64,000 bases of DNA from positions 1,471,697 to 1,535,696 of the forward strand of contig NZ_FMIY01000002.1 of the NCBI RefSeq assembly GCF_900095855.1, given 5' to 3'. The notes beneath the pieces were generated by a model. It ran no database searches, was not told the DNA's origin, and saw only the letters and a list, made by a program, of their open reading frames with translations. A program made the translations under genes and the position numbers. Source of the DNA: Megasphaera coli (GTDB lineage Bacteria > Bacillota > Negativicutes > Veillonellales > Megasphaeraceae). Below are positions 13,584 through 63,119 of this stretch, one piece after another. Position 1 is the first letter of the stretch; each line of letters opens with the position of its first letter.

Positions 13584-13638
13584 CTTCGGAGCTTTTCCGG
13601 CCGGCCGGATTCCTGTTGCCCGGAAAAATCGGGTATAT

Positions 13639-13666: not shown

Positions 13667-13674
13667 CCGGAGAA

Positions 13675-14622
13675 TTACAGGATTATGTTTTGTTGTTTTC
13701 CCCGGAGGAAGGCGTGGATATTATCGAAAACGATAGCTGCCCGCTTGCGCATGGATTCTTCCGTAGCGAAGGCGGCGTGGGGAGTTACAATTGTATTTTT
13801 TGCGTGAAGGAGCGGATGGTCCGTAGGGATTGGCGGCTCCGTTTCAAAGACGTCAATGCCGGCGCCGGCAATTTTTCCTTCGTTCAGGGCCTTTGCCAGA
13901 GCCGTGGAATCGACAACCGGTCCGCGTGCTTCGTTAATGAGATACGCCGTCGGTTTCATATAAGACAGGCTTTCGGCATTAATGATATGGCGTGATTCTT
14001 CCGTTACGGGACAATGGAGGGAGACTATGTCCGCCCGGGAAAGGAGTTCTTTTAAGGGCAAGTACGTAATCAGGTCGGTGTCGGCTTTTTCCGAAAAGCC
14101 GTTGTATGCCGTTACGGTTGCGCCGAAGGCATGTACCAGCTGTGCTACCTTGGAGCCGATGGCACCGGTTCCGAAAAGAGCGACGGTCTTGCCTTCCAGC
14201 TCGGTACCGATAAGGCCCGCCTTGGTCTTGCCGGCACGGCAGGCGGCATCCGCCTGGGGGATATGGCGGAGGAGATCCAGCATCATGGCGACGGTTAATT
14301 CGGCGACGGCGACGGTAGAATAGCCGGACGCGTTGCTTACTTTTATGCCCCTTGCCTTGGCGGCCGCAAGATCTACATGGTCTACGCCTGTAAAGGCTAT
14401 ATTAATGTATTTAAGCTTTGTGCACGCGTTGATCACTTCCGCCTTTAAGGGCATATTGGCGATGCAGAGAATATCTGCATCCTTGGCTTCCTTAATTTGT
14501 TCGTCCGTATCGTCGGTCCGTTCGCAGGCCGCAAATTCATGACCGTATTTTTCCAAGGATGCCGCATAGGTTCGGAGCTCTTCGGCCGGTATTCCCAGCG
14601 ATTCGAGTAAAACGACTTTCAT
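13675..14622 (-). CDS. D-isomer-specific 2-hydroxyacid dehydrogenase (NAD)
   Basis: The 315-residue protein has the two-domain fold of the D-2-hydroxyacid dehydrogenases. The Rossmann motif is ALFGTGAIGSKV (about 148-159), and the catalytic triad positions are the Arg in INEARGPVVD, the Glu in GIDVFETEPP and the His in TPHAAF. It interconverts a 2-oxoacid and a D-2-hydroxyacid with NAD(H). The substrate cannot be told: phosphoglycerate, hydroxypyruvate, or an arylpyruvate/branched 2-oxoacid for redox disposal are all open. AGGAGG precedes the start. Confidence 0.88.
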   Translation of the reverse strand: MKVVLLESLGIPAEELRTYAASLEKYGHEFAACERTDDTDEQIKEAKDADILCIANMPLKAEVINACTKLKYINIAFTGVDHVDLAAAKARGIKVSNASGYSTVAVAELTVAMMLDLLRHIPQADAACRAGKTKAGLIGTELEGKTVALFGTGAIGSKVAQLVHAFGATVTAYNGFSEKADTDLITYLPLKELLSRADIVSLHCPVTEESRHIINAESLSYMKPTAYLINEARGPVVDSTALAKALNEGKIAGAGIDVFETEPPIPTDHPLLHAKNTIVTPHAAFATEESMRKRAAIVFDNIHAFLRGKQQNIIL

Positions 14623-48368: not shown

Positions 48369-48413
48369 TGAATAATCTTAGTGTAAAAAATGTTGAGTTC
48401 GGAGGGATATTGT

Positions 48414-49706
48414 ATGTCAATGAGCAGTTTGGCGAGACAGGCCGGCATGTCCGAGACGGAGTGGAAGCAGGCCGTAAAATTTGACAGCACCGACTGGGGC
48501 TGGATTGTCATGAGTATCGGTATGGCCATCGGTGCGGGAATCGTGTTTTTGCCCGTACAGGTCGGGTTGGTAGGTGTTTGGGTATTCTTATTATCGGCTC
48601 TTATTGCGTATCCGTCTATTTATTTGCTGCAACGCCTTTTTATCAATACCTTGGCCGATTCGCCGGATTGTAATGACTATCCGAGTGTTATCAGCGGCTA
48701 TTTAGGAAAAAACTGGGGCTTCCTCCTTGGTATTTTATACTTCATGATGAGCCTTATTTGCGTCTTCATGTACTCGACGGCTCTTACCAATGACAGCGCG
48801 TCCTTCCTTCAATCCTTCGGCGTAACGGACGGCCTTCTGTCGGACAGTCCGTGGTACGGCCTGGCCGTCATCTGTTTTATGGTCGTCATCGCGTCGCGCG
48901 GTGAAAAACTGCTCTTCAAAGTATCGACACTCATGGTGCTCACGAAGCTCTGCGTCGTCGCTTGCCTGGGCCTGCTCATGGTGCAGTCATGGGATTTGGC
49001 GAACATAGGTGCTTTCCCCGATTTCGGTTACATCTTAAAGCAGACGATCATTATGCTGCCTTACACGCTTACGTCGATTATCTTCATTCCCAGCTTGAGT
49101 CCCATGGTTATTTCTTACCGGTCTCATCACAAGTCTATTTACGTAGCTCGCTATAAAGCGCTGCGAGCTATGAAAATCGCCTTTCTTGTCCTCTTTGTCA
49201 CGATCTTTTCGTATGCCTTGTCCTTTAACCTGGCTATGGGACACGAACAGGCGGTGGAAGCATATACGCATAATATTTCCGCCCTTGCTATGGTTGCGAA
49301 AGGTGCCGACGGTGATGTGGTGAAGATTTTCAGCCTCGTCTTGAACATCTTTGCCGTCGTTACGGCGTATTTCAGTGTATTCCTCGGCTTTAAGGAAGCG
49401 TGTACGGGCATTGCCATCAATCTCTTGTCCCGCGCCCTGCCGGCGGAGAAAATCAATAGAGAACGCGTGGCAACGGGGATTCTTGTCTTTGCGGTCGCCG
49501 TTTCCTGGGGGGCTATCGTTCTCAACGCGCCGATTTTAAAACTCCTCTCGTTCTTGGGTCCCATTTTGGGCTGTATCGGCTGCCTCATCCCTGCATACCT
49601 CGTGTACAAGGTGGCATCGCTGCGGCAGTACAAGGGAGCAGTCCTGAACCTCATCGTCTTTTCCGGCGTCCTCCTCGTCGTTTCCCCCTTTATTGCCATG
49701 ATTTAA
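48414..49706 (+). CDS. HAAAP-family amino acid permease (serine/threonine transporter type)
   Basis: The 430-residue protein has about 11 membrane helices and resembles SdaC/TdcC-type HAAAP transporters: WIVMSIGMAIGAGIVFLPVQVGLVG near residue 30, then LPYTLTSIIFIPSLSPMVISYRSHHKS near 221, and VFLGFKEACTGIAINLL near 320. It imports serine, threonine or a similar amino acid with protons or sodium. ATG 48414 follows GGAGGG. The XRE regulator is divergent. No metabolic gene follows, so the substrate is a guess from family. Confidence 0.88.
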   Translation: MSMSSLARQAGMSETEWKQAVKFDSTDWGWIVMSIGMAIGAGIVFLPVQVGLVGVWVFLLSALIAYPSIYLLQRLFINTLADSPDCNDYPSVISGYLGKNWGFLLGILYFMMSLICVFMYSTALTNDSASFLQSFGVTDGLLSDSPWYGLAVICFMVVIASRGEKLLFKVSTLMVLTKLCVVACLGLLMVQSWDLANIGAFPDFGYILKQTIIMLPYTLTSIIFIPSLSPMVISYRSHHKSIYVARYKALRAMKIAFLVLFVTIFSYALSFNLAMGHEQAVEAYTHNISALAMVAKGADGDVVKIFSLVLNIFAVVTAYFSVFLGFKEACTGIAINLLSRALPAEKINRERVATGILVFAVAVSWGAIVLNAPILKLLSFLGPILGCIGCLIPAYLVYKVASLRQYKGAVLNLIVFSGVLLVVSPFIAMI

Positions 49707-51091: not shown

Positions 51092-51109
51092 AAGGTATTA
51101 TATATAACG

Positions 51110-51145
51110 AATCGGGTTCGGACATACACTCCGAACCCGATTTTT
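51110..51145 (+). terminator. Strong terminator before the AT-rich catabolic island
   Basis: AATCGGGTTCGGA (51110-51122) pairs perfectly with TCCGAACCCGATT (51130-51142), followed by T5. It marks the left border of the island. Confidence 0.88.
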
Positions 51146-51235: not shown

Positions 51236-51264
51236 TTTACTTGATTTAAAAAGTTTGATACAAT
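51236..51264 (+). promoter_or_regulatory. Candidate promoter of the 2-oxoacid island
   Basis: TTTACT (51236-51241), 17 bp, TACAAT (51259-51264), with an extended -10 TGA. Transcription should start near 51271, just ahead of the palindrome at 51284-51302. Confidence 0.55.
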
Positions 51265-51283
51265 TTAAGTGAAAACGAAACAA

Positions 51284-51302
51284 TGTTCTATTTAATAGAA
51301 CA
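51284..51302. promoter_or_regulatory. Operator candidate 1 of the island
   Basis: TGTTCTAT (51284-51291) and ATAGAACA (51295-51302) are exact inverses around TTA, 13-31 bases after the predicted start of transcription, where a repressor would block elongation or initiation. The 11-mer AACAATGTTCT (51279-51289) recurs at 56647-56657 ahead of the permease gene. Confidence 0.6.
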
Positions 51303-51324
51303 AGGACGAAAGGAGGGCAATTAT

Positions 51325-52611
51325 ATGTTTACAAGTAATGAAAATACTAGGTTAACATTAAAACAATTTATTATTATTTTCTTTCTCGGGCTGGGGTATA
51401 CCGTAGTTTATGCAACTCCCTTTATCCAATATGTTTTTTATGATTCCCTCGTATCAGCACTTGGCTGTTCTCAACAACAACTAGGTTATTTAATCACTAT
51501 CTTTGGCATCGGTAATATACTGGCGGCCTTTGGAGGAATATTAAGTGATAAATTTAATACTAAAACTATATATATGATAGGCATTGGATTAATTTGTATC
51601 TTGAATTTCTTATTTGTATTCAATATGAATTATGAATTTGCTCTTTTCACCTGGGCCGGATTTGCTTTCGCCGGCTTGTTCCTGTATTTTCCGGCACACA
51701 TTAAATTAAGCCGGCTTGTAGGCAGTGAACACCAACAGGGAACTATTTTTGGATTTGTTGAGGCTTTTTGTGGAGTAGGAAATGTCATCGTAAACTTTAT
51801 TGCATTATATTTTTTTACAAAATTTGCAACTGATGCATATGGAATAAACGGATTGAAAGCAGCAATTGTCTGTTATGCCGTCATCGGAGTTTTTACGTTA
51901 ATTGGATTATATTTTTTAATTCCCAAACCGGAACAACAAGGAAATAAAGATGAAGATACAGAAAAAATGACATTTTCTGACTGGATTCATGTAATGACAG
52001 ATATACGGACATGGATGTCCGGTATAGCTGTCTTCGCAACATATACAATGTATTGTACTTTGTCATATTATACCCCGTATTTTACAAATGTATTAGGCAC
52101 ATCTGTTGCTTTTACAGGAGGATTAGCTATCATCCGTATATACGGAACTCGCTTTGTCGGAGCGCCGCTTGGAGGATGGCTGGGTGATAAAATTCATTCA
52201 TTATCAGCTGTGGTCGGTTTTGCTTTATCAGGTGCTATTGTTTTTGTCATTGTATTTAAATTATTACCGGTAGGAATCGCTCCTGCTTTACTTATAGTGA
52301 TGACAATTCTGACAGCTGTTTTTACATATATGGCTAGAGGTTCCATGTTTGCTGTTCCGACAGAATTGCAAATTCCCAGAAAGTATGCAGGATCCACGTC
52401 CGGTTTAGTTTGTTGCATCGGATACTGTCCTGATTTATTTATATTTGTTCTTTATGGTTATTGGCTTGATACCTATGGGAATGCCGGATTTGACAAAATA
52501 TTTTTGTTTTCCACTGTGGTTATGGCAATCGGAGTCTTAAATTCTATATTGATTCAAATATACAAGAAGAAGCATAAGATTTCTAATTCTAAGGATGCCC
52601 CTATAGTATAA
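51325..52611 (+). CDS. MFS transporter 1 of the island
   Basis: The 428-residue protein has 12 membrane helices of the major facilitator type, with GFVEAFCGVGNVIVNFIALY near residue 145 and GRSMF-like cytosolic loops. It is a paralog of the protein at 55366-56622, sharing PFIQYVFYD, AGFAFAGLFLYFPAHIKLSR and the C-terminal GYCPDLFIFVLYGYWLDTYGNAGFD blocks, and both belong to an MFS branch whose substrates I cannot name. Neighbours suggest a 2-hydroxyacid, 2-oxoacid or carboxylate. ATG 51325 follows AAAGGAGGG. It is the first gene after the operator. Confidence 0.85.
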   Translation: MFTSNENTRLTLKQFIIIFFLGLGYTVVYATPFIQYVFYDSLVSALGCSQQQLGYLITIFGIGNILAAFGGILSDKFNTKTIYMIGIGLICILNFLFVFNMNYEFALFTWAGFAFAGLFLYFPAHIKLSRLVGSEHQQGTIFGFVEAFCGVGNVIVNFIALYFFTKFATDAYGINGLKAAIVCYAVIGVFTLIGLYFLIPKPEQQGNKDEDTEKMTFSDWIHVMTDIRTWMSGIAVFATYTMYCTLSYYTPYFTNVLGTSVAFTGGLAIIRIYGTRFVGAPLGGWLGDKIHSLSAVVGFALSGAIVFVIVFKLLPVGIAPALLIVMTILTAVFTYMARGSMFAVPTELQIPRKYAGSTSGLVCCIGYCPDLFIFVLYGYWLDTYGNAGFDKIFLFSTVVMAIGVLNSILIQIYKKKHKISNSKDAPIV

Positions 52612-52628
52612 AGAAAGGAGAATGCCTA

Positions 52629-54020
52629 ATGGAACAAAAAATCATTTGTCAATTGCAGAAGATTTGTGGGGAAAAATATGTCTACACCTTATCTGAAGAT
52701 GTAAAAAGATATTTGTACGATGAAACAGAAGAATTAATTAGACCACAGGCCAATACGGATTGTATTGTCGTCCGTCCATCAACAAATGAAGAAGTAGCTC
52801 AAATATTACAAACAGCAAATGAAATGAATTTTTATGTAATTCCTCGTGGTGGCGGTACCGGTGCCTGTGGTGCCGTCGTTCCGACAAAGCCAAGTGTCAT
52901 CTTATCAATGGAACGGTTTAAAAATATTATAGAAGTGGACCGTACAGGCATGATGATAACGGCACAATCCGGAGTTACCTTATATGAATTAAACGAATTC
53001 TTAGATAAAGAAGTACATGAACTTTATTTTCCTTGCCATCCTGGCGATGAGGGAGCACAACTTGGCGGCTTAGCCGTTGAAAATGCCGGTGGAGTCCGGG
53101 CCGTAAAACATGGTATTATGCGGAATTATGTTAAAGGCTTAAAAGTATGTCTTGCTTCCGGTGAAATTGTACAGCTTGGCGGAAAATTACTGAAAAACAA
53201 CATGGGTTATGATCTTATGCATTTAATTATTGGCTCTGAAGGAACATTGTGCGTTATTTTAGAAGTTACTTTTAAACTTCATCCACGATTAGAGCATACC
53301 GGAGCCATGGTTGTATCTTTTAATAATGCCAAGGATGCAATAGATTGTGTAGCTGCAGTACAGACATCAGGCATTATTCCTTTAGCAGTAGAATATATGG
53401 ATAGAGTTATAGCTTTAAAAACAGCGGAGGAAATCGGAAAACCTTGGCCACTCCATGATAGGGGTAATGTTGATATCATTTATATGCTGGAAGGGAAGTC
53501 GGAAGACGAGTTATATGAAATGGCAGAAAAAATAGATATGATTTCAGCTCAAACAGGAGCCTTAACTTGTATTATTGCAGAAGATGAAAAGAAGCAGAAG
53601 GTTATTTTAGATATTCGTTCTGCCATATATGAGGTATTTAAGCCGTATTTTGTTGATTCTCTTGATACGGCAGTGCCCATGTGCCATGTAAATGATTTAC
53701 TTACCGATTTTGATAATATTGCCTCAAAATATGGAACAACGACACCGCGAGTAGGACATGTAGCAGATGGGAATTTTCACAATTTTATTTTGAGGAATAA
53801 TGATGGTTCTGTCCCGGAATGGGCAGATGATATACGGCGGGAGTTTTATGAGGCGGCAATTACTTATGGCGGTACAATAACGGCAGAACACGGAACCGGG
53901 AAAACCCGAAAAGATTACATGACCATGCAATATTCCCCCGGAATATTATCAATTATGAAAGGCATTAAAAATATTTTCGACCCGAAAGGTATTTTAAATC
54001 CAAACTGCATATTAGATTAA
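52629..54020 (+). CDS. FAD-dependent 2-hydroxyacid dehydrogenase (GlcD/D-lactate dehydrogenase type)
   Basis: The 463-residue protein has an N-terminal FAD_binding_4 domain (about 38-180: VVRPSTNEEVAQIL, IPRGGGTGACGAVVP, GVRAVKHGIMRNYVKG) and a C-terminal FAD-oxidase domain (about 220-460) with the metal-binding GHVADGNFHNF and AEHGTGKTRKDY. It oxidises a 2-hydroxyacid to the 2-oxoacid; in anaerobes of this type the electrons usually pass to an electron-transfer flavoprotein, though no Etf genes lie here. In the island it would feed the same 2-oxoacid pool as the aminotransferase. Start ATG 52629, after AAAGGAG. Confidence 0.88.
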   Translation: MEQKIICQLQKICGEKYVYTLSEDVKRYLYDETEELIRPQANTDCIVVRPSTNEEVAQILQTANEMNFYVIPRGGGTGACGAVVPTKPSVILSMERFKNIIEVDRTGMMITAQSGVTLYELNEFLDKEVHELYFPCHPGDEGAQLGGLAVENAGGVRAVKHGIMRNYVKGLKVCLASGEIVQLGGKLLKNNMGYDLMHLIIGSEGTLCVILEVTFKLHPRLEHTGAMVVSFNNAKDAIDCVAAVQTSGIIPLAVEYMDRVIALKTAEEIGKPWPLHDRGNVDIIYMLEGKSEDELYEMAEKIDMISAQTGALTCIIAEDEKKQKVILDIRSAIYEVFKPYFVDSLDTAVPMCHVNDLLTDFDNIASKYGTTTPRVGHVADGNFHNFILRNNDGSVPEWADDIRREFYEAAITYGGTITAEHGTGKTRKDYMTMQYSPGILSIMKGIKNIFDPKGILNPNCILD

Positions 54021-54107
54021 GAAATAACTTCCGGTAAAAATAAAATCTGTAAAAAGTATTTTACTGTAAGCTTCATTAAGAATGCTGATAAAAGGAGTGT
54101 GAGTATA

Positions 54108-55289
54108 ATGAACTTTTCTGTAAGAATGTCCAGAATCAAACCGTCTGCTATTCGTGATGTGCAAAAGAAGATCTCGCAGCGTCCGGGTGTTATCTCTTTT
54201 GCAGCAGGGCTTCCGGATCCTGATTTGTTTCCGTTAGATGATTTATCTGCAGCGACAGAGGCAACAATTCATAAACATGGAAAAATTGCTTTTCAATACG
54301 GCTTGACAAAAGGGTACGGGCCTATGATTGATACCATTATTCACCGTATGAAATCTAAAGAAAACGTGGAGGCACTGCCGGAAAATATTATTATGACGAC
54401 GGGGTCGCAACAAGGGCTTGCTTTATGTGCAATGATGCTTCTTGAGGAAGGTGATATTGTTGTGGCGGAAAATCCCAGCTATTTGGGGGGAATTAATGCC
54501 TGCCGTCCTTATGGAGTATCGTTTATCGGTGTGGATACTGATGACGAAGGTATAGATACGGAGCTGTTGGATAAGAGTCTTCGTGAAAATCAGAAGGTTA
54601 AGCTGCTATATGTTATCCCGAATTTTCAAAATCCAACGGGAAAGGCTTGGTCTTTAAAGCGGCGAATAGCATTTATGGAAGTAATTAAAAAATATGATGT
54701 ATTAGTCGTTGAAGATAATCCTTATGGAGAAATTCGCTTTGAAGGAAGCCCGGTCCCGTCTTTAAAATCCATGGATACAGAAGGGAAGATTGTTTATTTG
54801 GGATCATTTTCAAAAGTTTTAGCTCCCGGCTTACGATTGGCTTGGATCTGCGCAACTTCTGAAATTATTCGTCAGGCGGAACTTATTAAAGAAGGCTGGG
54901 ACTTGCAGTGCAATCAATTCTGTCAGGTTCAGGCCGTGGAATATATTCAATCTTTTGACTTTGAAGCTCATATTAAAAAGATTCAACAACGATATAAAGG
55001 TAAATGCAATTTAATGTTAGAACAGATGAGCAAAGAATTTCCCGAAAACGTTTCCTTTACCCGGCCGGAGGGGGGCATGTTTATTTGGGTGACACTTCCG
55101 GAACATTTAGATGCCGGTACATTTTTGGATATTGCTTTAGAAAAAGGCGTAGCCTATGTACCCGGTGAATTTTTCTATGCCGATGAAGGACCTAAAAATA
55201 CATTGAGAATGAATTTTACAACCGTATCGGAAGAAAAAATCGCAGAAGGAATTAAACTGTTAGGGCAAGCACTGCATGGCGTTTGCTAA
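54108..55289 (+). CDS. PLP-dependent aminotransferase (2-aminoadipate/KAT-II type)
   Basis: The 393-residue fold-type I aminotransferase has GVISFAAGLPDPDLFP near 25, TTGSQQGLALCAMML near 92, VIPNFQNPTGKAW near 170, and YLGSFSKVLAPGLRLAW with the PLP-binding lysine near 233. These features match the LysN / kynurenine-aminotransferase-like group that acts on branched, aromatic or aminoadipate substrates. With the oxidoreductase it would turn an amino acid into a 2-oxoacid. ATG 54108 is ten bases after GGAG; the GTG nine bases upstream is too close to that site. Confidence 0.88.
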   Translation: MNFSVRMSRIKPSAIRDVQKKISQRPGVISFAAGLPDPDLFPLDDLSAATEATIHKHGKIAFQYGLTKGYGPMIDTIIHRMKSKENVEALPENIIMTTGSQQGLALCAMMLLEEGDIVVAENPSYLGGINACRPYGVSFIGVDTDDEGIDTELLDKSLRENQKVKLLYVIPNFQNPTGKAWSLKRRIAFMEVIKKYDVLVVEDNPYGEIRFEGSPVPSLKSMDTEGKIVYLGSFSKVLAPGLRLAWICATSEIIRQAELIKEGWDLQCNQFCQVQAVEYIQSFDFEAHIKKIQQRYKGKCNLMLEQMSKEFPENVSFTRPEGGMFIWVTLPEHLDAGTFLDIALEKGVAYVPGEFFYADEGPKNTLRMNFTTVSEEKIAEGIKLLGQALHGVC

Positions 55290-55365
55290 ATAAATCCTGT
55301 CGGTATACCTGCAGGTGCGGATATTCTTGTTTGAGTATAGCTGTGTTTTTTGAGGAGGTATTCAT

Positions 55366-56622
55366 ATGAGTTACAAGATAAGCCCCAAATTAGTATTTAC
55401 TATGCTTATTTTAGGTGCGTGTTGGTCCATTGTTTATATTATTCCCTTTATTCAGTATATTTGGTATGACCCTTTCAAAGAATTTATTCACGGTACAAAT
55501 ATGGAGATGGGGTTTCTTATCACGATTTACGGTTTCGGAAATGTTTGGGGCGCCCCTTTAGGCGGCTGGTTTGCCGACCGGTTCAATTATAAATATATTT
55601 ATGCCGGTTCTGTCATATTAAATGGATTAATTACCTTGGCTTTCGTTTTTAACCCGACTTATTCTTTTGCGGTAGCTATGTGGGTAGGCTTTGCATTTGC
55701 CAGTTTGTTTATGAATTATCCCGCTCATATCAAAATTATCAGGAGCCTGACTACTGATGAAAACCAGGGAAAAATCTTCGGTTTCAATGAAACCTTTATA
55801 GGTGTCTGGAATATTATTATCAATATGATGATGATGGCTATCTATGTGAAATTTATGGAAGGGATTGCCGGGCTTACGGCAGCAATGATTGGAGTTGCTA
55901 TATTATCTATCATATTAGGTGCTATTGTCTGTATCGTATTGGAAAGTCCCAAAAAACAGCTTATTCGGGAAGAACAGTCCAATATTGTCAAGGATTTTAT
56001 GCTTGTCGGTAAAAATCCGGCAACTTGGCTTGTTGCCATTCTTGTGTTTTCCATTTATTCTTTTTTAACGACCTTAACATATTTTACTCCTTATTTTACG
56101 AATGTTCTGGGAGTAACCATCGTTTTTACCGGATGGGTCGCGATTTTACGCCAACATGGCATGACATTGCTGGGGGCTCCGATCGGCGGTTTTCTGTCTG
56201 ATTGGATCAAATCTCCTTCGAAGGTTTTGGTAGGAGTGCAGGTCCTGGGCGTGCTGGGTTTCATTTTGTTATTGACAGTTCATGAAATGAGTGCCGCGTT
56301 TATTATTGCATTAACGCTTATTTTATCGGCAGCCGTTTATATTGGACGGGGCTCTTACTATGCGACTATTACAGAAGCCGGGATTCCGAGAGAATTGACG
56401 GCATCGACTATCGGCATTGCCGCGGCGGTCGGATTTTCACCGGATCTTTTCCAATTTACATTGTTCGGATATTGGCTGGATATTTACGGCAATGCTGCCT
56501 ATGCCTACATGTTTATTTTCCAAGGGATCGTTTTAATTATCGGTACATTCGCGGCTATAGGAATTTTGCGGCTCCGTAGAAAAAACAGGCCCTATATCGA
56601 AGAAGCACATACTGCTGAATAA
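55366..56622 (+). CDS. MFS transporter 2 of the island
   Basis: The 418-residue protein is a 12-helix MFS transporter and a clear paralog of the one at 51325-52611 (PFIQYIWYD, VGFAFASLFMNYPAHIKI, GFNETFIGVWNIIINMMM, and GFSPDLFQFTLFGYWLDIYGNAAY). Two paralogs in one operon suggest uptake and efflux or two related acids. TGAGGAGG precedes the start. It follows the aminotransferase by 76 bases. Confidence 0.86.
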   Translation: MSYKISPKLVFTMLILGACWSIVYIIPFIQYIWYDPFKEFIHGTNMEMGFLITIYGFGNVWGAPLGGWFADRFNYKYIYAGSVILNGLITLAFVFNPTYSFAVAMWVGFAFASLFMNYPAHIKIIRSLTTDENQGKIFGFNETFIGVWNIIINMMMMAIYVKFMEGIAGLTAAMIGVAILSIILGAIVCIVLESPKKQLIREEQSNIVKDFMLVGKNPATWLVAILVFSIYSFLTTLTYFTPYFTNVLGVTIVFTGWVAILRQHGMTLLGAPIGGFLSDWIKSPSKVLVGVQVLGVLGFILLLTVHEMSAAFIIALTLILSAAVYIGRGSYYATITEAGIPRELTASTIGIAAAVGFSPDLFQFTLFGYWLDIYGNAAYAYMFIFQGIVLIIGTFAAIGILRLRRKNRPYIEEAHTAE

Positions 56623-56644
56623 GACTTTTTTATGAAACAATAAT

Positions 56645-56657
56645 AGAACAATGTTCT
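56645..56657. promoter_or_regulatory. Operator candidate 2 of the island
   Basis: AGAACA (56645-56650) and TGTTCT (56652-56657) are inverse around one A, and share AACAATGTTCT with operator candidate 1. They are flanked by a wider dyad TTTATGAAA (56629-56637) / TTTCATAAA (56661-56669). This ends just before the ribosome site of the permease, so an internal promoter may exist here. Confidence 0.55.
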
Positions 56658-56682
56658 GTTTTTCATAAAGGAGGTGCTTTAT

Positions 56683-58146
56683 ATGAAGTCCGACAGCAGT
56701 GACAGTACTTTAAAACGCACTTTAAAAGGCCGCCATATTAATATGATCGCATTGGGCGGAACGATTGGTACCGGCCTTTTCGTAGCTATGGGAGGATCCC
56801 TCAGTACTGCCGGCGCCGGCGGAACTCTTGTTGCTTATAGTGCTATCGGTTGTATGGTTTATTTTCTTATGACCAGTTTGGGGGAAATGTCTACCTATAT
56901 CCCTGTATCCGGTTCATTTGAAACCTATGCTTCACGGTTTATTGATCCGGCGCTCGGATTTGCCCTGGGATGGAATTATTGGCTCAATTGGACTGTAACC
57001 GTTGCATCGGAACTCGTTGCGGCAGCCATGCTTATCCGCTTTTGGTTTCCTGATACAAGTTCTTTTTTATGGAGCGCCTTGTTTCTGACGATTTTAATTT
57101 TCCTTAATGTTTTATCGGCAAAATTGTACGGGGAATCGGAATTCTGGTTTGCCGGCATCAAGGTTATTACCGTTATTGTGTTTCTTATTGCCGGAGTAGG
57201 TCTTATTACAGGACTTATCGGCGACAAGCCGGTCGGTTTTGAGAATCTGACGGCAGGAGAAGGGCTGTTTCCCGGAGGAATTTATGCCGGCTTCAGTGTT
57301 TTTCTTATTGCAGGCTATTCTTTTATGGGAACTGAAGTTATCGGTGTTGCCGCCGGAGAATCGGAGCATCCGAAACGTGATGTCCCCAAGGCCATCCATG
57401 CGGTATTCTGGCGAATTTTTCTGTTTTATATAGGGACGATCGTCGTTGTCGGTTTGCTTATGCCATATAACGATCCCGAACTCTTGCACAGCGGTATTGA
57501 AGCTATCGGTGTCAGTCCCTTCGTTTTGGTATTTGAACGCTCGGGAATGGCAATGGCCGCGACCGTTATGAATTTTATTATATTAACGGCAGTGCTGTCC
57601 TGTGGAAATACGGGGATTTATGCCGGATCACGCATGCTTTATGCCATGGCTCGGGAAGGAAAAGCGCCTGCCCTATTGACTAAAACGAGCAGAAACGGCG
57701 TTCCTTATCTTGCGGTCCTTACTACGGCCGCTGTCGGAATGCTGTCTTTTCTTACTTCTTTTGCAGGAACCGGTACCGTTTATGTTTGGCTCGTCGATGG
57801 TGCCGGCCTGACCAGCTTTATTGCCTGGTTCGGTATTGCCTGGAGTCACTATCGCTTTCGACTGGCATATATAGCACAGGGGAAGAAGCTGGAAGAACTT
57901 CCTTACAGCAGCCGCGGGTTTCCCTTCGGGCCAATTTTAGGCATGGTTGTCTGTACCATTGTTATAGTGGGACAAGCCACATTCTTTATTACTGATGAAA
58001 GCATTGACTGGAGCGGGCTTATTGTAACATACAGCAGTGTTCCTTTATTCCTGTGTCTTTTTATGTGGTACAAAATAAAGTACCGTACGCACGGTATAAA
58101 AGCGGAAGAAGCCGATTTTTCTTCGATCAAAGAATCCCGTACATAA
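56683..58146 (+). CDS. Amino acid permease (APC family, LysP/GabP type)
   Basis: The 487-residue protein has 12 membrane helices and the APC signature GRHINMIALGGTIGTGLFVAMG near residue 16, a GWNYWLNWTVTVASELVAAA stretch near 96, GYSFMGTEVIGVAAGESEHPKRDVPKAI near 212 and SRMLYAMAREGKAPALLTKT near 323. It should import the amino acid used by the island's aminotransferase; the sequence resembles broad amino acid transporters and does not settle which. ATG 56683 follows AAGGAGGTG by six bases. An operator-like palindrome lies just before it. Confidence 0.9.
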   Translation: MKSDSSDSTLKRTLKGRHINMIALGGTIGTGLFVAMGGSLSTAGAGGTLVAYSAIGCMVYFLMTSLGEMSTYIPVSGSFETYASRFIDPALGFALGWNYWLNWTVTVASELVAAAMLIRFWFPDTSSFLWSALFLTILIFLNVLSAKLYGESEFWFAGIKVITVIVFLIAGVGLITGLIGDKPVGFENLTAGEGLFPGGIYAGFSVFLIAGYSFMGTEVIGVAAGESEHPKRDVPKAIHAVFWRIFLFYIGTIVVVGLLMPYNDPELLHSGIEAIGVSPFVLVFERSGMAMAATVMNFIILTAVLSCGNTGIYAGSRMLYAMAREGKAPALLTKTSRNGVPYLAVLTTAAVGMLSFLTSFAGTGTVYVWLVDGAGLTSFIAWFGIAWSHYRFRLAYIAQGKKLEELPYSSRGFPFGPILGMVVCTIVIVGQATFFITDESIDWSGLIVTYSSVPLFLCLFMWYKIKYRTHGIKAEEADFSSIKESRT

Positions 58147-58178
58147 TCAAAATAAGCGGGTTTAGAGGGAGATGAATT

Positions 58179-59516
58179 ATGAATTATCAAGAAGAATATA
58201 AGAAAAAACTGACAACGCCGGAAGAAGCGGTAAAAGTCATACAAAGCGGAGATTGGGTGGAATACGGCTCCTTCGGCAGCCCGCTTATCGCCTTGGACAG
58301 GGCCTTGGCAGCAAGACGGGATGAATTGCATGATGTTAAGATCCGTACCGATTTTGACCCTGTCATGCCCGCTGTAGTTGAAGCGGATCCGGAAGGAAAC
58401 GCTTTTACATATCACAGCTTTCAGTTTAGTGCCGTTGAACGCCATCTGATGAAGGAAGGCAAATGTTACTATATTCCAATGCTTTATCATGAGCTTCCTA
58501 CATATTTCAGCAAAATTTATGACTGTTCGGTAGCCATGGTTCCCGTATCTCCGATGGACGAATTCGGAAATTTCTATTTAGGGCCGCAGGTCTCTCATAA
58601 TAAAGAAATGATTGATCATGCCAAAATCGTCATTTTGGAAGTAAATGATCAGATGCCCCGCTGTTTGGGCGGTTACTACGAAACTGTCCATATTTCCGAA
58701 GCAGATCTTGTTGTTGAAACAAGCAATCCTCTTATAGAAGTACCGCCGGCAAAATCAGACGCTGTTGATGAACGGATTGCGCATCACGTTATGAATGAAC
58801 TTTGTGACGGCGCTACCATTCAGCTCGGAATCGGAGGTATTCCCAATGCAATTGGTGCGATGATCTCCGTATCCGATTTGACGGACTTGGGGATTCATAC
58901 GGAAATGTTTACCGATTCCATGGTGGATATGGTGCGTTCGGGGCGTGTTACAGGGAGAAAAAAGAAAATTAATTGCAGTAAACACGTTTATACTTTTGCA
59001 ATGGGAATGAAGGAATGCTACGAGTTTGTAAATAACAACTCTTCTTGTGCCGCCTTTCCCGTAAATTATGTCAATGATCCGTTTGTTATTGCTCAGCATG
59101 ATAATTTTATGGCTATTAACGGAGCCTTGGAGGTGGATTTGTATGGACAAGTATCGTCGGAGAGCTCCGGAATATTTCAGATTTCCGGTACCGGCGGACA
59201 AATCGATTTTATGCTCGGATCATATCGTTCTCAAGGCGGAAAAGGTTTTATCTGCCTGCCGTCGACATTTAAGAAAAAAGACGGTACAGTCATTAGCCGC
59301 ATCCGAAATTGTTTTGAGCCTTACACTGTTGTAACGATGCCTCGAACTATAACAAATTATATCGTTACGGAATACGGTGCAGTTCAACTGAAGGGAAAAT
59401 CAACCTGGGAAAGGGCGGAGTTGCTTATTTCTATTGCCCACCCGGATTTTAGAGAAAACTTAATCAGACAGGCAGAATATATGAAAATTTGGCGCAGAAG
59501 TCAAAAACGCATTTGA
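58179..59516 (+). CDS. Acetyl-CoA hydrolase/transferase-family CoA-transferase 3, of the island
   Basis: The 445-residue protein is the third CoA-transferase of this window, with GIGGIPNAIGA, LGIHTEMFTD (Glu242 as expected thioester residue) and SSESSGIFQISGTGGQIDF. It lies between the permease (32 bases) and the ferredoxin gene (43 bases) of the island. It should transfer CoA from the acyl-CoA made by the neighbouring oxidoreductase to acetate or another acid, releasing the end-product acid. The substrate is inferred from context. It is well separated in sequence from the other two. Confidence 0.88.
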   Translation: MNYQEEYKKKLTTPEEAVKVIQSGDWVEYGSFGSPLIALDRALAARRDELHDVKIRTDFDPVMPAVVEADPEGNAFTYHSFQFSAVERHLMKEGKCYYIPMLYHELPTYFSKIYDCSVAMVPVSPMDEFGNFYLGPQVSHNKEMIDHAKIVILEVNDQMPRCLGGYYETVHISEADLVVETSNPLIEVPPAKSDAVDERIAHHVMNELCDGATIQLGIGGIPNAIGAMISVSDLTDLGIHTEMFTDSMVDMVRSGRVTGRKKKINCSKHVYTFAMGMKECYEFVNNNSSCAAFPVNYVNDPFVIAQHDNFMAINGALEVDLYGQVSSESSGIFQISGTGGQIDFMLGSYRSQGGKGFICLPSTFKKKDGTVISRIRNCFEPYTVVTMPRTITNYIVTEYGAVQLKGKSTWERAELLISIAHPDFRENLIRQAEYMKIWRRSQKRI

Positions 59517-59559
59517 TCACCATAAATATATTCTTTGTAGCATCCGAGGAGGAGCCGGA

Positions 59560-59778
59560 ATGAATGAAACGATAAAAAGGAAAGTGTTGACACGTCTTGA
59601 GAGATGTAAACAATGTGAACTTTGTATTTTTTATTGTCCTAAAAAATGTATTTCATTCAGCGATGAAGTGAATGGCGGCGGCTATCATTATACCTGCATT
59701 GATGATACTGCATGCATCGGCTGCGGTACTTGTTATATTGTATGTCCGGACGGCGTATATGAAGTTTTGGGCAGTTAG
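59560..59778 (+). CDS. 2x[4Fe-4S] ferredoxin subunit of 2-oxoacid oxidoreductase
   Basis: The 72-residue protein has CKQCELCIFYCPKKC (about residues 16-30) and CIGCGTCYIVCPDGVYEV (about 51-68), the two [4Fe-4S] motifs of the delta subunit of KorDABC/VorDABC-type enzymes. It carries electrons from the TPP centre to the soluble ferredoxin. It comes 11 bases before the alpha-subunit gene. Confidence 0.93.
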   Translation: MNETIKRKVLTRLERCKQCELCIFYCPKKCISFSDEVNGGGYHYTCIDDTACIGCGTCYIVCPDGVYEVLGS

Positions 59779-59789
59779 GAGGCAGAAAA

Positions 59790-60851
59790 ATGAAACAATT
59801 TATGCAAGGAAATGAAGCCATTGCCGAGGCGGCAGTCCGAGCCGGAGCCAGAATGTTTGCCGGATATCCTATTACGCCGACAACAGAGATATTGGAATAT
59901 TTATCATGGCGTCTCCCTGAAGTCGGAGGGACCTTTGTACAAGCCGAATCAGAAGTTGCCAGCATCCATATGGTGGTGGGCGCCGCTACCTGCGGTGTCC
60001 GAGCACTTACGGCTTCCAGCGGGCCGGGGCTCAGCTTAAAGCAGGAAGGCATCTCGGTTTTGGCAGATGAACGGCTCCCGGCGCTTATTATTAATTCGGT
60101 ACGGTACGGCAACGGTATCGGAACGCTCGTATCATCCCAATGCGATTATCTTAGAGATACCCGCGGCGGAGGCAATGGCGACTACCGCCCGTTCGTACTC
60201 GCCCCTTCAAGTATTCAGGAGGCCGTTGATCTTGTAGGTATCGGTTTTGATTTGGCGGAAAAATATCGAATGGTTTGTATGCTGGAGACGGAAGCGGCAC
60301 TTAGCCATATGATGGAAGATTGTGAACTTCCGGAAATGCAGGATCCGCACCGATACGATTGGGGCATGGACGGGCATTATACGCATCCCCGAATCGGTAT
60401 ATTTGACCGCAACAGCGTGCAGGAGGCCAAGGAGTGGATGGTCGAAAAATATGCCCTTATCAAAGAAAATGAACAACGTTGGGAAGAAGGGTATCTAAAT
60501 GATGCCGAATATATTTTTGTTTCCTACGGGCTGCCGGGGCGCAGTACCGTCGGTGCCGTCGAGACTCTGCGCGCACGGGGAGAAAAAGCGGGTTTTATCC
60601 GTCCTATTACTTTATGGCCATTTCCCGAAAAGGCTTTTGAAAAGATAAGTGCTCATGTAAAGGGTATTATGACCATAGAAGCAAATGCGACAGGACAACT
60701 CATTGATGATGTCGCATTAACGGTAAAACGCCAAGGCAAGGGAATGATTCCGGTATATACACATCCTTATATTTGGGGAGTCGCGCCGCGCCGAACGATT
60801 ATTGACGACTATCAAAAAATGAAAGCAGGAGCCTTAAAGGAGGTATATTGA
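59790..60851 (+). CDS. 2-oxoacid:ferredoxin oxidoreductase alpha subunit (VorB/KorA type)
   Basis: The 353-residue protein matches the alpha subunits of 2-oxoacid:ferredoxin oxidoreductases: QGNEAIAEAAVRAGARMFAGYPITPTTEILEYL at the start and TASSGPGLSLKQEGISVLADERLPALIINSVR near 70. Such subunits of 2-oxoglutarate and of branched-chain (VorB) enzymes are similar, so the substrate stays open. It follows the ferredoxin gene and precedes the TPP-binding subunit by one base. Confidence 0.92.
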   Translation: MKQFMQGNEAIAEAAVRAGARMFAGYPITPTTEILEYLSWRLPEVGGTFVQAESEVASIHMVVGAATCGVRALTASSGPGLSLKQEGISVLADERLPALIINSVRYGNGIGTLVSSQCDYLRDTRGGGNGDYRPFVLAPSSIQEAVDLVGIGFDLAEKYRMVCMLETEAALSHMMEDCELPEMQDPHRYDWGMDGHYTHPRIGIFDRNSVQEAKEWMVEKYALIKENEQRWEEGYLNDAEYIFVSYGLPGRSTVGAVETLRARGEKAGFIRPITLWPFPEKAFEKISAHVKGIMTIEANATGQLIDDVALTVKRQGKGMIPVYTHPYIWGVAPRRTIIDDYQKMKAGALKEVY

Positions 60852-60852
60852 T

Positions 60853-61596
60853 ATGGCAGTTGCAAAGAAAATCCCGTACATTATCGACAAACCTATGGGG
60901 TTTTGCCCCGGCTGCGGCCATGGCGTCGTTATTCGATTGATTGCGGAGTCTTTAGAAGAATTGGGACAAGATAATAATATTATTTTTGGAATCGGTGTCG
61001 GCTGTTCCAGTCTTTTGGGCGGAGGCCTTAATGCCGATCGTCAGCATTGTCCTCACGGTCGTGCCGGAGCGGTGTGTACCGGAATGAAGCGGGTCAATCC
61101 GGAAAATATTATTATTTCTTATCAAGGAGACGGGGATGCTTACAGTATTGGTATCGGCGAAAGCACTACTGCCGCTTATCGTAATGAGCATTTTACAACG
61201 ATCGTAATTAATAATACGAATTATGGGATGACCGGCGGGCAGATGAGTCAAACGACGTTGCCCGGACAAAAGACCAGTACAACGGTCGGAGGACGAGATT
61301 GTGACATAACCGGTTTTCCCATGCGATTTCCGGAGATGATTGCTCACAGCTTTAATCCTGCATATGTTGCCCGTGGCAGTATTGCCAACATCAAAGATAT
61401 CCATCAGGCTAAAAAATTTATCAAGAAGGCTATTGAAGTCCAGATTTCCGGTGAAGGGTATTCCTTTGTGGAAATACTTTCTCCCTGTCCGACAAATTGG
61501 CATATGAGCCCGATACAGGCCATGAAGCATATTGAGAATGTTATTAAACCTTATTTTCCTATAGGGGAGTTTAAGTTACCCAAAGCTGATACATAA
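60853..61596 (+). CDS. 2-oxoacid:ferredoxin oxidoreductase beta subunit (TPP-binding)
   Basis: The 247-residue protein has GFCPGCGHGVVIRLI near 17, the TPP-magnesium motif YQGDGDAYSIGIGESTTA near 90 followed by NNTNYGMTGGQMSQTT near 116, and the conserved LSPCPTNW. It carries the thiamine diphosphate that attacks the 2-oxoacid. The beta gene starts one base after the alpha gene. Confidence 0.94.
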   Translation: MAVAKKIPYIIDKPMGFCPGCGHGVVIRLIAESLEELGQDNNIIFGIGVGCSSLLGGGLNADRQHCPHGRAGAVCTGMKRVNPENIIISYQGDGDAYSIGIGESTTAAYRNEHFTTIVINNTNYGMTGGQMSQTTLPGQKTSTTVGGRDCDITGFPMRFPEMIAHSFNPAYVARGSIANIKDIHQAKKFIKKAIEVQISGEGYSFVEILSPCPTNWHMSPIQAMKHIENVIKPYFPIGEFKLPKADT

Positions 61597-61611
61597 GAGG
61601 AGGATACGAAA

Positions 61612-62148
61612 ATGAAAGAAATACTCTTAGGAGGATTAGGCGGTCAAGGCGTTCTCACGGCGGGAACAATGCTTGCCGAAATGGCTATTTATAAAGGGTA
61701 TAGCGCGACCTGGAGTCCGGAATACGGATCGGCAATGCGCGGCGGCACGGCAAGTTGCGTTGTTAAATTCGGAGAAGGCCGTATTTACAGCCCGGAAAAA
61801 GAAGAGCCGGATATCCTTTTGGCAATGAATAAGGAAACGTTGAGTAAATTCGGGGATATTGTAAAAAAAGAAGGCGTAGTTATTATTAATTCCAATATGG
61901 TGTCCGTTCCTGAAGATTTTCGAAAAGACGTTCAGCTCATTGAAGTGCCATGTTTAAATTTGGCGGAAGAAATACATCATCCCAAAGGTGCCAATATTAT
62001 TATGAGCGGTGTTATTATTAAAAAAACGGGAAATTTTACTATGCAGGAAGCTATCGACGGAATGAACGATACGTTTCGGCGTAAGGGCAAAGAGAAATTT
62101 GAAGCATTGAACACTGCCGCTATGAAAACAGGGTTTACATTTACATAG
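61612..62148 (+). CDS. 2-oxoacid:ferredoxin oxidoreductase gamma subunit
   Basis: The 178-residue protein starts ILLGGLGGQGVLTAGTMLAE and has SPEYGSAMRGGTASCVVKFGEGRIYSP near 36, the usual gamma subunit (CoA-binding part). It completes a four-subunit delta-alpha-beta-gamma enzyme in the order seen for KorDABC/VorDABC. A strong hairpin follows its stop. Confidence 0.94.
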   Translation: MKEILLGGLGGQGVLTAGTMLAEMAIYKGYSATWSPEYGSAMRGGTASCVVKFGEGRIYSPEKEEPDILLAMNKETLSKFGDIVKKEGVVIINSNMVSVPEDFRKDVQLIEVPCLNLAEEIHHPKGANIIMSGVIIKKTGNFTMQEAIDGMNDTFRRKGKEKFEALNTAAMKTGFTFT

Positions 62149-62220
62149 TATCCGGTATTTAATACTGTATTACGATGTCCAATATTTATAATATAACGCA
62201 AAGAACGAACCCTCTCTTAA

Positions 62221-62266
62221 TTTTAAATCCACCCGGACAACTTCGTCGGTCCGGGTGGATTTAAAA
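62221..62266 (+). terminator. Terminator closing the island operon
   Basis: An 18-bp perfect stem (62221-62238 with 62249-62266) including CCACCCGGAC/GTCCGGGTGG closes over ten bases, and A/T runs sit at the base. It separates the operon from the IclR gene. Confidence 0.88.
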
Positions 62267-62284
62267 TGTTTTGGAAATTTATTA

Positions 62285-62332
62285 TAGTAATGATAAAATA
62301 TGAATGTATTTATTCATATTTTATCATTACTA
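62285..62332. repeat. Long inverted repeat just upstream of the IclR gene
   Basis: A perfect 21-bp inverted repeat (62285-62305 with 62312-62332; arms begin TAGTAATGATAAAATATGAA) has a 6-base spacer GTATTT. It ends three bases before the AGGAGGGG ribosome site and 14 bases before the IclR start. It lacks a downstream T tract, so it reads as an operator for autoregulation or an mRNA hairpin that hides the ribosome site, rather than a terminator. Confidence 0.6.
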
Positions 62333-62345
62333 AGGAGGGGCGGAG

Positions 62346-63119
62346 ATGAATAATAATATTGCATCTGTAGAAAGAGCTCTCGATATATTGCTTTTATTAT
62401 ACGGTGAAGGAAAAGAAATGGGAGTATCTCAAATTGCAGGGACATTGGGCATATATAAAAGTACAGTTTTCAGGACCTTATATACACTGCAGGAAAAGAA
62501 CTTTGTACAGAAAAACGAGCTTACAGATAAATATTGGCTGGGCCCCAGTTTATATACGATCGGAATGATGGTAGCCAATTCATACTCTTTAAGTGATATC
62601 GTTGCGCCGGAGGCCGAGGTGCTTTGCCAAAAAGTAAAAGAAGTTATTAATGTCTCCGTACTTCATGCAGATCCCATTAACGGATATCGCAGTGTCGTGG
62701 TCTTTAAGGCAAAAGGACCGCAGCAAATTTTGGGGGTCGATCCGCAAATCGGTTCCAGCACAGCCGCATATTCTTCCTCTGTCGGTAAATGTATGCTTGC
62801 TTTTAATAATATTGATTGGCAAATTATTAAGGGCACAAAATTTCAACAATTTACAGAGCATACTATTACGGATGTAGCCGAATTAAAGACGGAACTGGAG
62901 CGAATTCGTGCGCAAGGATATGCAATTGACAATGAGGAACGCGAAATAGGGTTGTTTTGTATAGGCGCACCTATTTTTAATAAACATGGGAAAGCAATTG
63001 CCGCAATTTCTGTTTCAGGACCCAAGGCACGCATTACTGACAGCCGATTTCATGAAAAAGTAAAGTTATTAAAAGAAGCGGCACGGCATATTTCTATAGC
63101 TACCAATGAATTAGCGTAA
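62346..63119 (+). CDS. IclR-family transcriptional regulator
   Basis: The 257-residue protein has the IclR winged helix (about 6-65: VERALDILLLLYGEGKEMGVSQIAGTLGIYKSTVFRTLYTLQEKNFV) and effector domain (about 80-250) with AYSSSVGKCMLAF near 141 and EEREIGLFCIGAPIFNKHGKAIAAISVSGP near 199. It is the only regulator in the island and the most likely controller of the upstream operon; the ligand may be a 2-oxoacid or hydroxyacid. AGGAGGGG precedes the ATG. Confidence 0.92.
   Translation: MNNNIASVERALDILLLLYGEGKEMGVSQIAGTLGIYKSTVFRTLYTLQEKNFVQKNELTDKYWLGPSLYTIGMMVANSYSLSDIVAPEAEVLCQKVKEVINVSVLHADPINGYRSVVVFKAKGPQQILGVDPQIGSSTAAYSSSVGKCMLAFNNIDWQIIKGTKFQQFTEHTITDVAELKTELERIRAQGYAIDNEEREIGLFCIGAPIFNKHGKAIAAISVSGPKARITDSRFHEKVKLLKEAARHISIATNELA

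What the first reader, a model, noticed from the sequence alone, without database searches (positions are those of the whole stretch)
51236..63119. AT-rich island encoding a self-contained amino/hydroxy acid oxidation system
Between two strong terminators lie an MFS pair, a FAD 2-hydroxyacid dehydrogenase, an aminotransferase, an amino acid permease, a CoA-transferase and a ferredoxin-linked four-subunit 2-oxoacid oxidoreductase, with an IclR regulator after the second terminator. This predicts: hydroxyacid or amino acid in, 2-oxoacid, acyl-CoA with reduced ferredoxin, then free acid out with a thioester kept. Two inputs (hydroxy and amino) feeding one 2-oxoacid pool is an unusual combination in one transcript, and is the best candidate for an undescribed pathway here.
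Basis: partly seen in the sequence, partly recalled or inferred. Interest (0 to 1): 0.7.

Follow-up and report, generated by a model that had tools for sequence, protein, structure and literature searches.

The report
Mobile two-input acid-oxidation gene island
A horizontally acquired gene set probably lets a small anaerobe take up a 2-hydroxy acid and its matching amino acid, turn both into one 2-oxo acid and oxidise that for energy; the core chemistry is known, and I found no description of this packaging with its control sites.

Summary
The set is real and horizontally acquired. In the order's other 60 genomes held, its OFOR reaches at most 52% identity. A genome of another family carries nearly the whole set at 44-82%. 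Among 33 named loci with the same OFOR clade, 28 have butyrate kinase; the entry enzyme is an aminotransferase, a FAD dehydrogenase (with Etf in three) or both (one). New evidence: IclR-type three-box operators stand before MFS1 and before the permease, and such sites are enriched in relatives carrying the IclR. So the parts look like one regulon, perhaps two transcripts. Dehydrogenase pocket residues argue against 2-hydroxyglutarate and for a hydrophobic side chain; the OFOR residue test is weaker. The chemistry is the known oxidative Stickland-type branch; dual entry, CoA-transferase ending and regulon are the new variant. The exact substrate is undetermined. A sister species keeps MFS1 and the dehydrogenase beside the same purine genes, with a different OFOR and CoA-transferase.

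The parts
51109..51143 (+). upstream intrinsic terminator
   Evidence: scan; fold z -6.1
51236..51264 (+). candidate promoter TTTACT-17-TACAAT with TG before the -10 (consensus match only)
51277..51301 (+). IclR-type three-box operator O1 (14 of 15 consensus positions), between candidate promoter and MFS1
   Evidence: best match in the 64-kb window, both strands; exact GTTCY-N7-RGAAC match at 51285
51325..52611 (+). MFS1, MFS transporter (the open frame has an earlier ATG at 51283, which would overlap O1; the ATG at 51325 follows a ribosome-binding-like AGGAGGG and is my choice)
   Evidence: 78% in sister G014 and 74% in G151
52629..54020 (+). FAD-linked D-2-hydroxyacid dehydrogenase, GlcD/LctD-like
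   Evidence: pocket residues
54099..55289 (+). class I/II aminotransferase, no HTH domain found (nearest solved: 1x0m/PH0207, 1wst, aminoadipate aminotransferase 2egy)
   Evidence: 65% in L035-L037
55366..56622 (+). MFS2, MFS transporter
   Evidence: 63-70% in L035-L037
56645..56657 (+). IclR-type operator O2 (exact RGAAC-N3-GTTCY; 13 of 15 of the three-box template), before the permease
56674..58146 (+). APC-family amino acid permease (in-frame ATG at 56683 is the more likely start)
58179..59516 (+). single-chain CoA-transferase (butyryl-CoA:acetate / 4-hydroxybutyrate CoA-T type, below the curated cutoff)
   Evidence: 71% in G151 against 52% for the best relatives in its own order
59560..59778 (+). 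OFOR delta subunit, 2x[4Fe-4S] ferredoxin
59790..60851 (+). OFOR alpha subunit (VorB/POR_N type)
60853..61596 (+). OFOR beta subunit (TPP-binding)
61612..62148 (+). OFOR gamma subunit
62220..62267 (+). downstream terminator hairpin
   Evidence: fold z -5.2
62285..62332 (.). 22-bp AT-rich inverted repeat just upstream of IclR
   Evidence: fold z -8.5
62346..63119 (+). IclR-family regulator (best NCBIfam hits BhcR and PcaR/PcaU models, below their cutoffs)

Best explanation
The island is a horizontally acquired, IclR-controlled catabolic regulon. MFS1 and the FAD dehydrogenase form one entry: a D-2-hydroxy acid with a hydrophobic side chain is imported and oxidised to the 2-oxoacid, electrons going to an Etf encoded elsewhere. 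The aminotransferase, with MFS2 and/or the permease, forms a second entry: the matching amino acid is transaminated to the same 2-oxoacid. The four-subunit OFOR makes acyl-CoA, CO2 and reduced ferredoxin. The CoA-transferase moves CoA to a carboxylate such as acetate, releasing the free acid and keeping the thioester. IclR at O1 and O2 represses until an intermediate is present. Shown: gene identities, operator-like sites, co-inheritance, exchangeable entry enzymes, pocket residues. Inferred: every flux, stereochemistry, Etf partner, CoA acceptor, IclR binding and sign of control, and the exact side chain (aliphatic preferred; aromatic not excluded).
For: Genes. Set in unnamed distant genome G151: MFS1 74, FAD enzyme 70, permease 67, CoA-T 71, IclR 53, aminotransferase 44, ferredoxin 69, OFOR alpha/beta/gamma 82/81/75%, with operators before MFS1 and CoA-T; its MFS2-like frame is only 205 aa, 46%. 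In 33 named clade loci (counted): Buk 28, Ptb 26, window-type aminotransferase (>=45%) 9, FAD dehydrogenase like the window's 5 (EtfBA beside it in L039, L042, L045), a longer GlcD-type relative 3, both entry types 1 (L039). Operators: 68 sites in 23 of 33 clade loci against a mean of 2.95 sites in 20 Markov copies (max 6), 60 of 68 outside predicted ORFs of >=120 aa, with a tolerance of 20-40 nt at ORF ends; sites in 20 of 23 loci with an IclR of >=35% and 3 of 10 without (Fisher p 0.0024). Three-box IclR sites are described in PMC8222616 (passages). O1 and O2 are the two best three-box matches in the window. Pocket: the D2HGDH C5-carboxylate residues T390, K401, Y432, N443 (mapped by me from the alignment) are Y, S, V, F here and Y, S, V/F, F in 6 orthologs (G014, G151, L042, L045, L051, L063); C1-carboxylate and metal residues are kept. 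OFOR alpha keeps the YPITP Thr and carboxylate Arg; beta has Leu at StOFOR Lys49.
Against: No expression, binding or enzyme data. The operator pattern was derived from these same loci before it was counted. Scores of 13 or more of 15 arise about 0.7 times, and 14 about 0.1 times, per window-length Markov copy. Two exact sites in the window lie inside genes, 28584 and 61651. The 47 more distant loci also have 12 sites in 9 loci against 3.55 expected. O1/O2 suggest two transcription units. Both entry types together are rare (1 of 33 named loci), and the CoA-transferase and permease are found in 0 of those 33. L039's 34% FAD enzyme has a different pocket (L, E, F, Y). The Lys49 test is weak: KorAB of H. 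thermophilus, specific for 2-oxoglutarate, lacks that residue, a K49R mutant preferred pyruvate, and only 1 of 49 outgroup VOR-type rows has K or R there. Two papers show VOR-like OFORs preferring aromatic acids. No Etf gene in the cluster. G151's 44% aminotransferase may not be orthologous; paralogs in the genus reach 50%. The genome is 89.9% complete, which limits statements of absence.
Confidence: 0.66

Rival explanations
1. Same architecture (so this overlaps the best explanation), but the pool is an aromatic 2-oxoacid, phenyl- or hydroxyphenylpyruvate from aryl-lactates and aromatic amino acids, giving arylacetates.
For: VOR-like four-subunit OFORs with aryl preference exist: HpdDEFG of C. 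scatologenes and two B. hydrogenotrophica enzymes. The FAD pocket is lined by Tyr and Phe.
Against: The same window already has an indolepyruvate-type OFOR (9696-11471, TIGR03336 above cutoff) with an aminotransferase and two CoA-transferases.
Confidence: 0.2
2. Lactate/alanine system: D-lactate and alanine feed pyruvate, and the OFOR is a pyruvate oxidoreductase.
For: The closest solved relative of the FAD enzyme is LctD of a lactate dehydrogenase (NAD+, ferredoxin). C. sporogenes VOR also acts on pyruvate.
Against: Two single-chain PFOR-like frames and five other GlcD-like genes lie elsewhere in the genome. The island's FAD enzyme has a pocket pattern not seen in those five. 28 of 33 related loci carry butyrate kinase; acetate kinase was not searched for.
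Confidence: 0.08
3. Glutamate/2-hydroxyglutarate system: a 2-oxoglutarate oxidoreductase giving succinyl-CoA.
For: Clade members include Acidaminobacter, and two of its loci hold a GltS-like transporter nearby (label by eye). A 2-oxoglutarate-specific KorAB lacks the Lys49 residue too.
Against: All four C5-carboxylate residues of D2HGDH are replaced, in the way reported for GlcD and D-lactate dehydrogenases. Beta has Leu where two solved relatives have Arg: 8ys5, named a 2-oxoglutarate enzyme, and 6n2n, recalled as one.
Confidence: 0.08
4. Independent genes that happen to lie together: the transporters, aminotransferase and FAD enzyme serve other pathways.
For: Gene order and partners vary between loci, and AT-MFS2 looks swapped as a unit.
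Against: The set recurs in G151 with the same operators, and MFS1-FAD dehydrogenase recurs beside a different OFOR in sister G014, also with operators.
Confidence: 0.08

Closest known systems
Oxidative branch clusters: aminotransferase + VOR-type OFOR + phosphate butyryltransferase + butyrate kinase (PMC13290082: abstract, section 35 and passages seen)
   Same: 2-oxoacid from an aminotransferase, four-subunit OFOR, acyl-CoA, free acid; most relatives of the window OFOR have Ptb and Buk
   Different: the window ends in a CoA-transferase, has a FAD 2-hydroxyacid dehydrogenase entry and IclR-type operators; the parts of the paper seen mention no hydroxyacid entry
Hpd cluster of Clostridium scatologenes, HpdDEFG-HpdJ-HpdK (PMC13285125: passages, sections 2.7 and 3 seen)
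   Same: four-subunit VOR-like OFOR plus a thioester-using ending; the abstract says similar trios are widespread in anaerobic Firmicutes
   Different: its endings are acyl kinase or ADP-forming ligase, and the substrate is tyrosine-derived
LctD of the lactate dehydrogenase (NAD+, ferredoxin) complex, 7qh2 (Etf coupling recalled)
   Same: the FAD enzyme's best solved match; EtfBA lies beside its relatives in L039, L042 and L045
   Different: no Etf in the island; pocket and cluster context differ
IclR family with three-box operators, PcaU/PobR/HmgR type (PMC8222616: passages seen)
   Same: regulator family and operator architecture; boxes resemble the two consensuses given there (GKTYCRYW3-4RYGRAMC and TGRAACAN1-2TGTTYCA)
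   Different: the named examples regulate protocatechuate and 4-hydroxybenzoate use; this regulon is a fermentative acid-oxidation set

Membership tests
VOR-type four-subunit 2-oxoacid:ferredoxin oxidoreductase | separate delta, alpha, beta, gamma genes with TPP and 2x[4Fe-4S] domains | tested here: met
VOR-type four-subunit 2-oxoacid:ferredoxin oxidoreductase | curated VorB model NF005507 | tested here: inconclusive
   best alpha hit, 364.9 bits against cutoff 399
VOR-type four-subunit 2-oxoacid:ferredoxin oxidoreductase | activity on branched-chain 2-oxoacids | not testable with these tools
   needs assay
2-oxoglutarate:ferredoxin oxidoreductase (KOR) | cationic residue at the StOFOR Lys49-beta position | tested here: inconclusive
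   Leu in the window, R in 6n2n and 8ys5; but a 2-oxoglutarate-specific KorAB lacks the residue
Stickland-type oxidative cluster with substrate-level phosphorylation | phosphotransacylase and acyl kinase in the cluster | tested here: not met
   CoA-transferase instead; the only Buk match in the genome is partial, 32%; Ptb not searched in the genome
D-2-hydroxyglutarate dehydrogenase | Thr390, Lys401, Tyr432, Asn443 for the C5 carboxylate | tested here: not met
   Y, S, V, F
D-2-hydroxyacid dehydrogenase (LDHD/GlcD/LctD superfamily) | Arg386, His434, His441, Glu475, His476 equivalents | tested here: met
Etf-coupled lactate dehydrogenase complex | etfBA in the operon | tested here: not met
   none in the island; EtfA homologs of 44% and 34% elsewhere
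Butyryl-CoA:acetate CoA-transferase | curated cutoff of TIGR03948 | tested here: not met
   539.4 bits against 674.8
IclR-family regulon | HTH_IclR and IclR_C domains plus palindromic/three-box sites before target genes | tested here: met
   binding itself not tested

The most novel reading that the evidence does not exclude
A mobile cross-feeding module, not yet described as far as I could search: fermenters that carry it scavenge both an amino acid and its D-2-hydroxy acid (a waste product of reductive Stickland fermenters and lactic acid bacteria; recalled) and oxidise both through one dedicated OFOR under one IclR switch. Entry enzymes (aminotransferase, FAD/Etf dehydrogenase) and exits (Ptb-Buk, single-chain or two-subunit CoA-transferase) are exchanged around a constant operator.
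Probability: 0.4. Interest if true: 0.65.

Novelty: new variant of a known kind. Interest (0 to 1): 0.5.

Why it matters
If right, gut and sediment anaerobes can re-oxidise the 2-hydroxy acids that other fermenters excrete, so branched-chain or aryl acid output would depend on hydroxy acid supply as well as on amino acids. The shared operator gives a simple genome signature for finding such regulons, and the inducer of the IclR would make the open question of OFOR substrate specificity testable.

Tried and rejected
Rejected: CoA-transferase recruited from the native genome (my note); G151 carries it at 71% against 52% for the best relatives in the own order. Rejected: OFOR as the genus's housekeeping enzyme; 6 of 14 other genus members have a 44-52% OFOR alpha, 5 of these in another gene context and in other tree branches. 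Considered: tRNA-Thr at 47068 as an integration site; nothing sought beyond its position.

Led nowhere: the promoter scan (56 found against 37.6 expected). Literature searches listed 4, 1, 0 and 0 papers; from titles and abstract starts none is about the combination with hydroxyacid entry, and those papers were not read. Only an open-access PMC library was searched. Structure prediction was not used. G151's family gave no second copy at E <= 1e-110 (1 of 13). Transporter substrates not resolved.

Limits of counts: loci came from six exact peptide patterns, the best 80 of 167 kept; the 33 'clade' loci are those of >=52% identity, several on short contigs. Besides the 9 window-type aminotransferases, L059-L061 have another type and L054, L056, L058 weak (25-26%) matches. 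Ptb in L032 is the best family hit but below the curated cutoffs; Buk is above; one representative each was scanned. The genus loci L011-L031 and most of L112-L153 were not analysed beyond their match, except L137-L143 and L145-L149.
Full report
What is there. The stretch 51236-63119 holds, on the + strand, MFS1, a GlcD-like FAD dehydrogenase, a class I/II aminotransferase without a DNA-binding domain, MFS2, an APC permease, a single-chain CoA-transferase, a 72-residue 2x[4Fe-4S] ferredoxin and the alpha, beta and gamma subunits of a 2-oxoacid:ferredoxin oxidoreductase (OFOR), then an IclR regulator. Hairpins at 51109-51143 and 62220-62267 fold far better than shuffles (z -6.1 and -5.2); the scan lists only the first. 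Gaps within the run are 1-78 bp. GC is lowest in the first four genes, 36-41%.

Where it comes from. In 61 genomes of the order, an OFOR alpha at E <= 1e-60 is found in 7, all of the same genus, and the six besides the window's own are 44-52% identical. In 398 genomes drawn from the phylum only two reach 1e-110: the window's own and G151, of another family, at 82%. A scan of named genomes gave 33 loci of 52-67% in scattered Clostridia, a Bacillus and Desulfovibrio-like bacteria. In a FastTree of alpha plus beta subunits (89 rows) the window lies inside this clade: a 28-row subclade has local support 0.99, a 10-row one 0.97 and a 7-row one 1.0; some nodes between are weak (0.33, 0.14) (G151 is not in that tree). 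The OFOR has travelled. G151 carries nearly the whole set in another order: MFS1 74%, FAD dehydrogenase 70%, permease 67%, IclR 53%, CoA-transferase 71%, aminotransferase 44%, a short MFS2-like frame of 205 residues, ferredoxin 69%, OFOR alpha/beta/gamma 82/81/75%. None of 12 other genomes of its family has the OFOR at E <= 1e-110.

What the relatives teach. Counted, of 33 clade loci 28 have butyrate kinase and 26 phosphotransbutyrylase (one representative each scanned: the kinase is above its cutoff, the transferase is the best hit but below), 9 a window-type aminotransferase, 5 a FAD dehydrogenase like the window's (three with EtfBA beside it), 3 a longer GlcD-type relative, and 1 (L039) both entry types. 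The CoA-transferase and the permease are found in 0 of 33. Many loci are cut by contig ends, so these are lower bounds. The nearest tree neighbours use different entries: aminotransferase in L032, L046 and L062, FAD dehydrogenase plus Etf in L042 and L045. So the entry enzymes are interchangeable around one OFOR, as expected if they make the same 2-oxoacid. MFS1 lies beside the FAD dehydrogenase in the window, G014, G151, L051 and L063; the window's aminotransferase and MFS2 are closest to those of L035-L037 (65% and 63-70%), where they share a cluster with an NhaC-type antiporter between them. The window thus looks like the G151-type island with an Anaerotignum-type aminotransferase-MFS2 pair in the middle (inference).

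A sister species tells the same story. G014 of the same genus has, beside a guanine deaminase and a xanthine-type permease as in the window's own genome (the permease of G014 labelled by eye), MFS1 (78%), the FAD dehydrogenase (75%) and an APC permease (50%), but with a different OFOR (alpha 43%), a two-subunit CoA-transferase and an IclR of 40%; no aminotransferase is in that cluster. Entry and control stayed, while the later enzymes differ.

Control. Intergenic regions of relatives showed a repeated GTTCY/RGAAC pattern. Written as RGAAC-N3-GTTCY-N7-RGAAC it is a three-box site of the kind described for IclR regulators (PMC8222616, passages). Exact two-box matches number 68 in 23 of 33 clade loci against a mean of 2.95 in 20 Markov copies, 60 of 68 outside predicted ORFs of 120 aa or more; in 47 more distant loci there are 12 in 9, against 3.55, including both that have an IclR of 47%. 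They occur in 20 of 23 clade loci with an IclR of >=35% identity and 3 of 10 without (p 0.0024). In the window the two best three-box matches on either strand are at 51277 (14 of 15), before MFS1, and at 56645 (13 of 15), before the permease. G151 has sites before MFS1 and the CoA-transferase, and G014 has two between its OFOR and IclR. Against this: the pattern was derived from the same loci; scores of 13 or more arise about 0.7 times per shuffled window; two exact matches in the window, 28584 and 61651, fall inside genes; three clade loci with IclR (L033, L046, L049) have no exact site. My reading is one regulon with possibly two promoters.

Which substrate. D2HGDH binds the second carboxylate with Thr390, Lys401, Tyr432 and Asn443; in GlcD and D-lactate dehydrogenases these are replaced by a large hydrophobic, two small and a hydrophobic residue (PMC7801405, passages). 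Here they are Tyr, Ser, Val and Phe, and in six orthologs Tyr, Ser, Val or Phe, and Phe, while the catalytic and first-carboxylate residues are kept; L039's 34% relative has L, E, F, Y (residue mapping mine, from the alignment). LDHD, active on hydrophobic D-2-hydroxyacids but not on D-malate or D-2-hydroxyglutarate, has a hydrophobic pocket at this end (PMC10589216, passages). In the OFOR beta subunit the residue at StOFOR Lys49, whose change to Ile abolished 2-oxoglutarate activity, is Leu; clade rows have L 17, N 13, H 3, I 1. This second test is weak: the same paper says a 2-oxoglutarate-specific KorAB lacks the residue and that a K49R mutant preferred pyruvate (PMC5020499, passages), and 48 of 49 outgroup rows lack K or R too. 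So the dehydrogenase argues against a dicarboxylate and for a hydrophobic side chain, and the OFOR is compatible. Neither separates aliphatic from aromatic: PMC13290082 and PMC13285125 report VOR-like OFORs that prefer aromatic acids. An indolepyruvate-type OFOR with its own aminotransferase and CoA-transferases in the same window makes an aliphatic role more likely.

How it probably works. Hydroxy acid and amino acid enter; the FAD enzyme and the aminotransferase make one 2-oxoacid; the OFOR makes acyl-CoA and reduced ferredoxin; the CoA-transferase releases the acid and keeps the thioester. The FAD enzyme probably hands electrons to an Etf from elsewhere: its nearest solved relative is LctD, EtfBA lies beside relatives in L039, L042 and L045, and the genome has EtfA homologs of 44% and 34%. 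The genome's only match to butyrate kinase is partial and 32% (genome 89.9% complete), which fits a CoA-transferase ending. All fluxes are inferred.

Novelty. The core is the known oxidative branch; the 2026 papers describe OFOR clusters with Ptb/Buk or ligase endings. Searches for the combination with hydroxyacid entry listed nothing on it, in an open-access library only. I file it as a new variant of a known kind.

Noticed in passing
window 1367-14622: A second, parallel cluster: indolepyruvate-type OFOR (alpha TIGR03336 above cutoff), aminotransferase, two CoA-transferases of the same family as 58179-59516, an NAD-type 2-hydroxyacid dehydrogenase at 13675 and a sigma-54 regulator with PrdR/PrpR similarity below cutoff.
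   Followed up: partly
window 62285-62332: A 22-bp AT-rich inverted repeat directly upstream of the IclR gene (fold z -8.5); it does not match the GTTCY/RGAAC operator, function unknown.
   Followed up: partly
window 48390-49706; L140 379-1671, L141 11240-12532, L142 11115-12407: The transporter upstream of the island resembles one that lies 0.6 kb (L141, L142) or about 6 kb (L140) from the genus's own OFOR in sister genomes (same first residues, by eye), while that OFOR was not found in the window's genome (89.9% complete); the island may sit near the place of a lost native OFOR.
   Followed up: no
L046 0.6-5 kb and L062 14-17 kb (Acidaminobacter): A GltS-like transporter and an M20-like peptidase (labels by eye) lie near the OFOR cluster.
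   Followed up: no
L054 4237-4692 (Desulfovibrio MAG): Three full three-box operators close together, about 5-6 kb from the OFOR, beside genes outside the cluster, suggesting a wider regulon.
   Followed up: no
L154/L155 (G151 contig 8, 66147-66761): MFS2-like frame of only 205 aa between the aminotransferase and the ferredoxin; perhaps a remnant.
   Followed up: no
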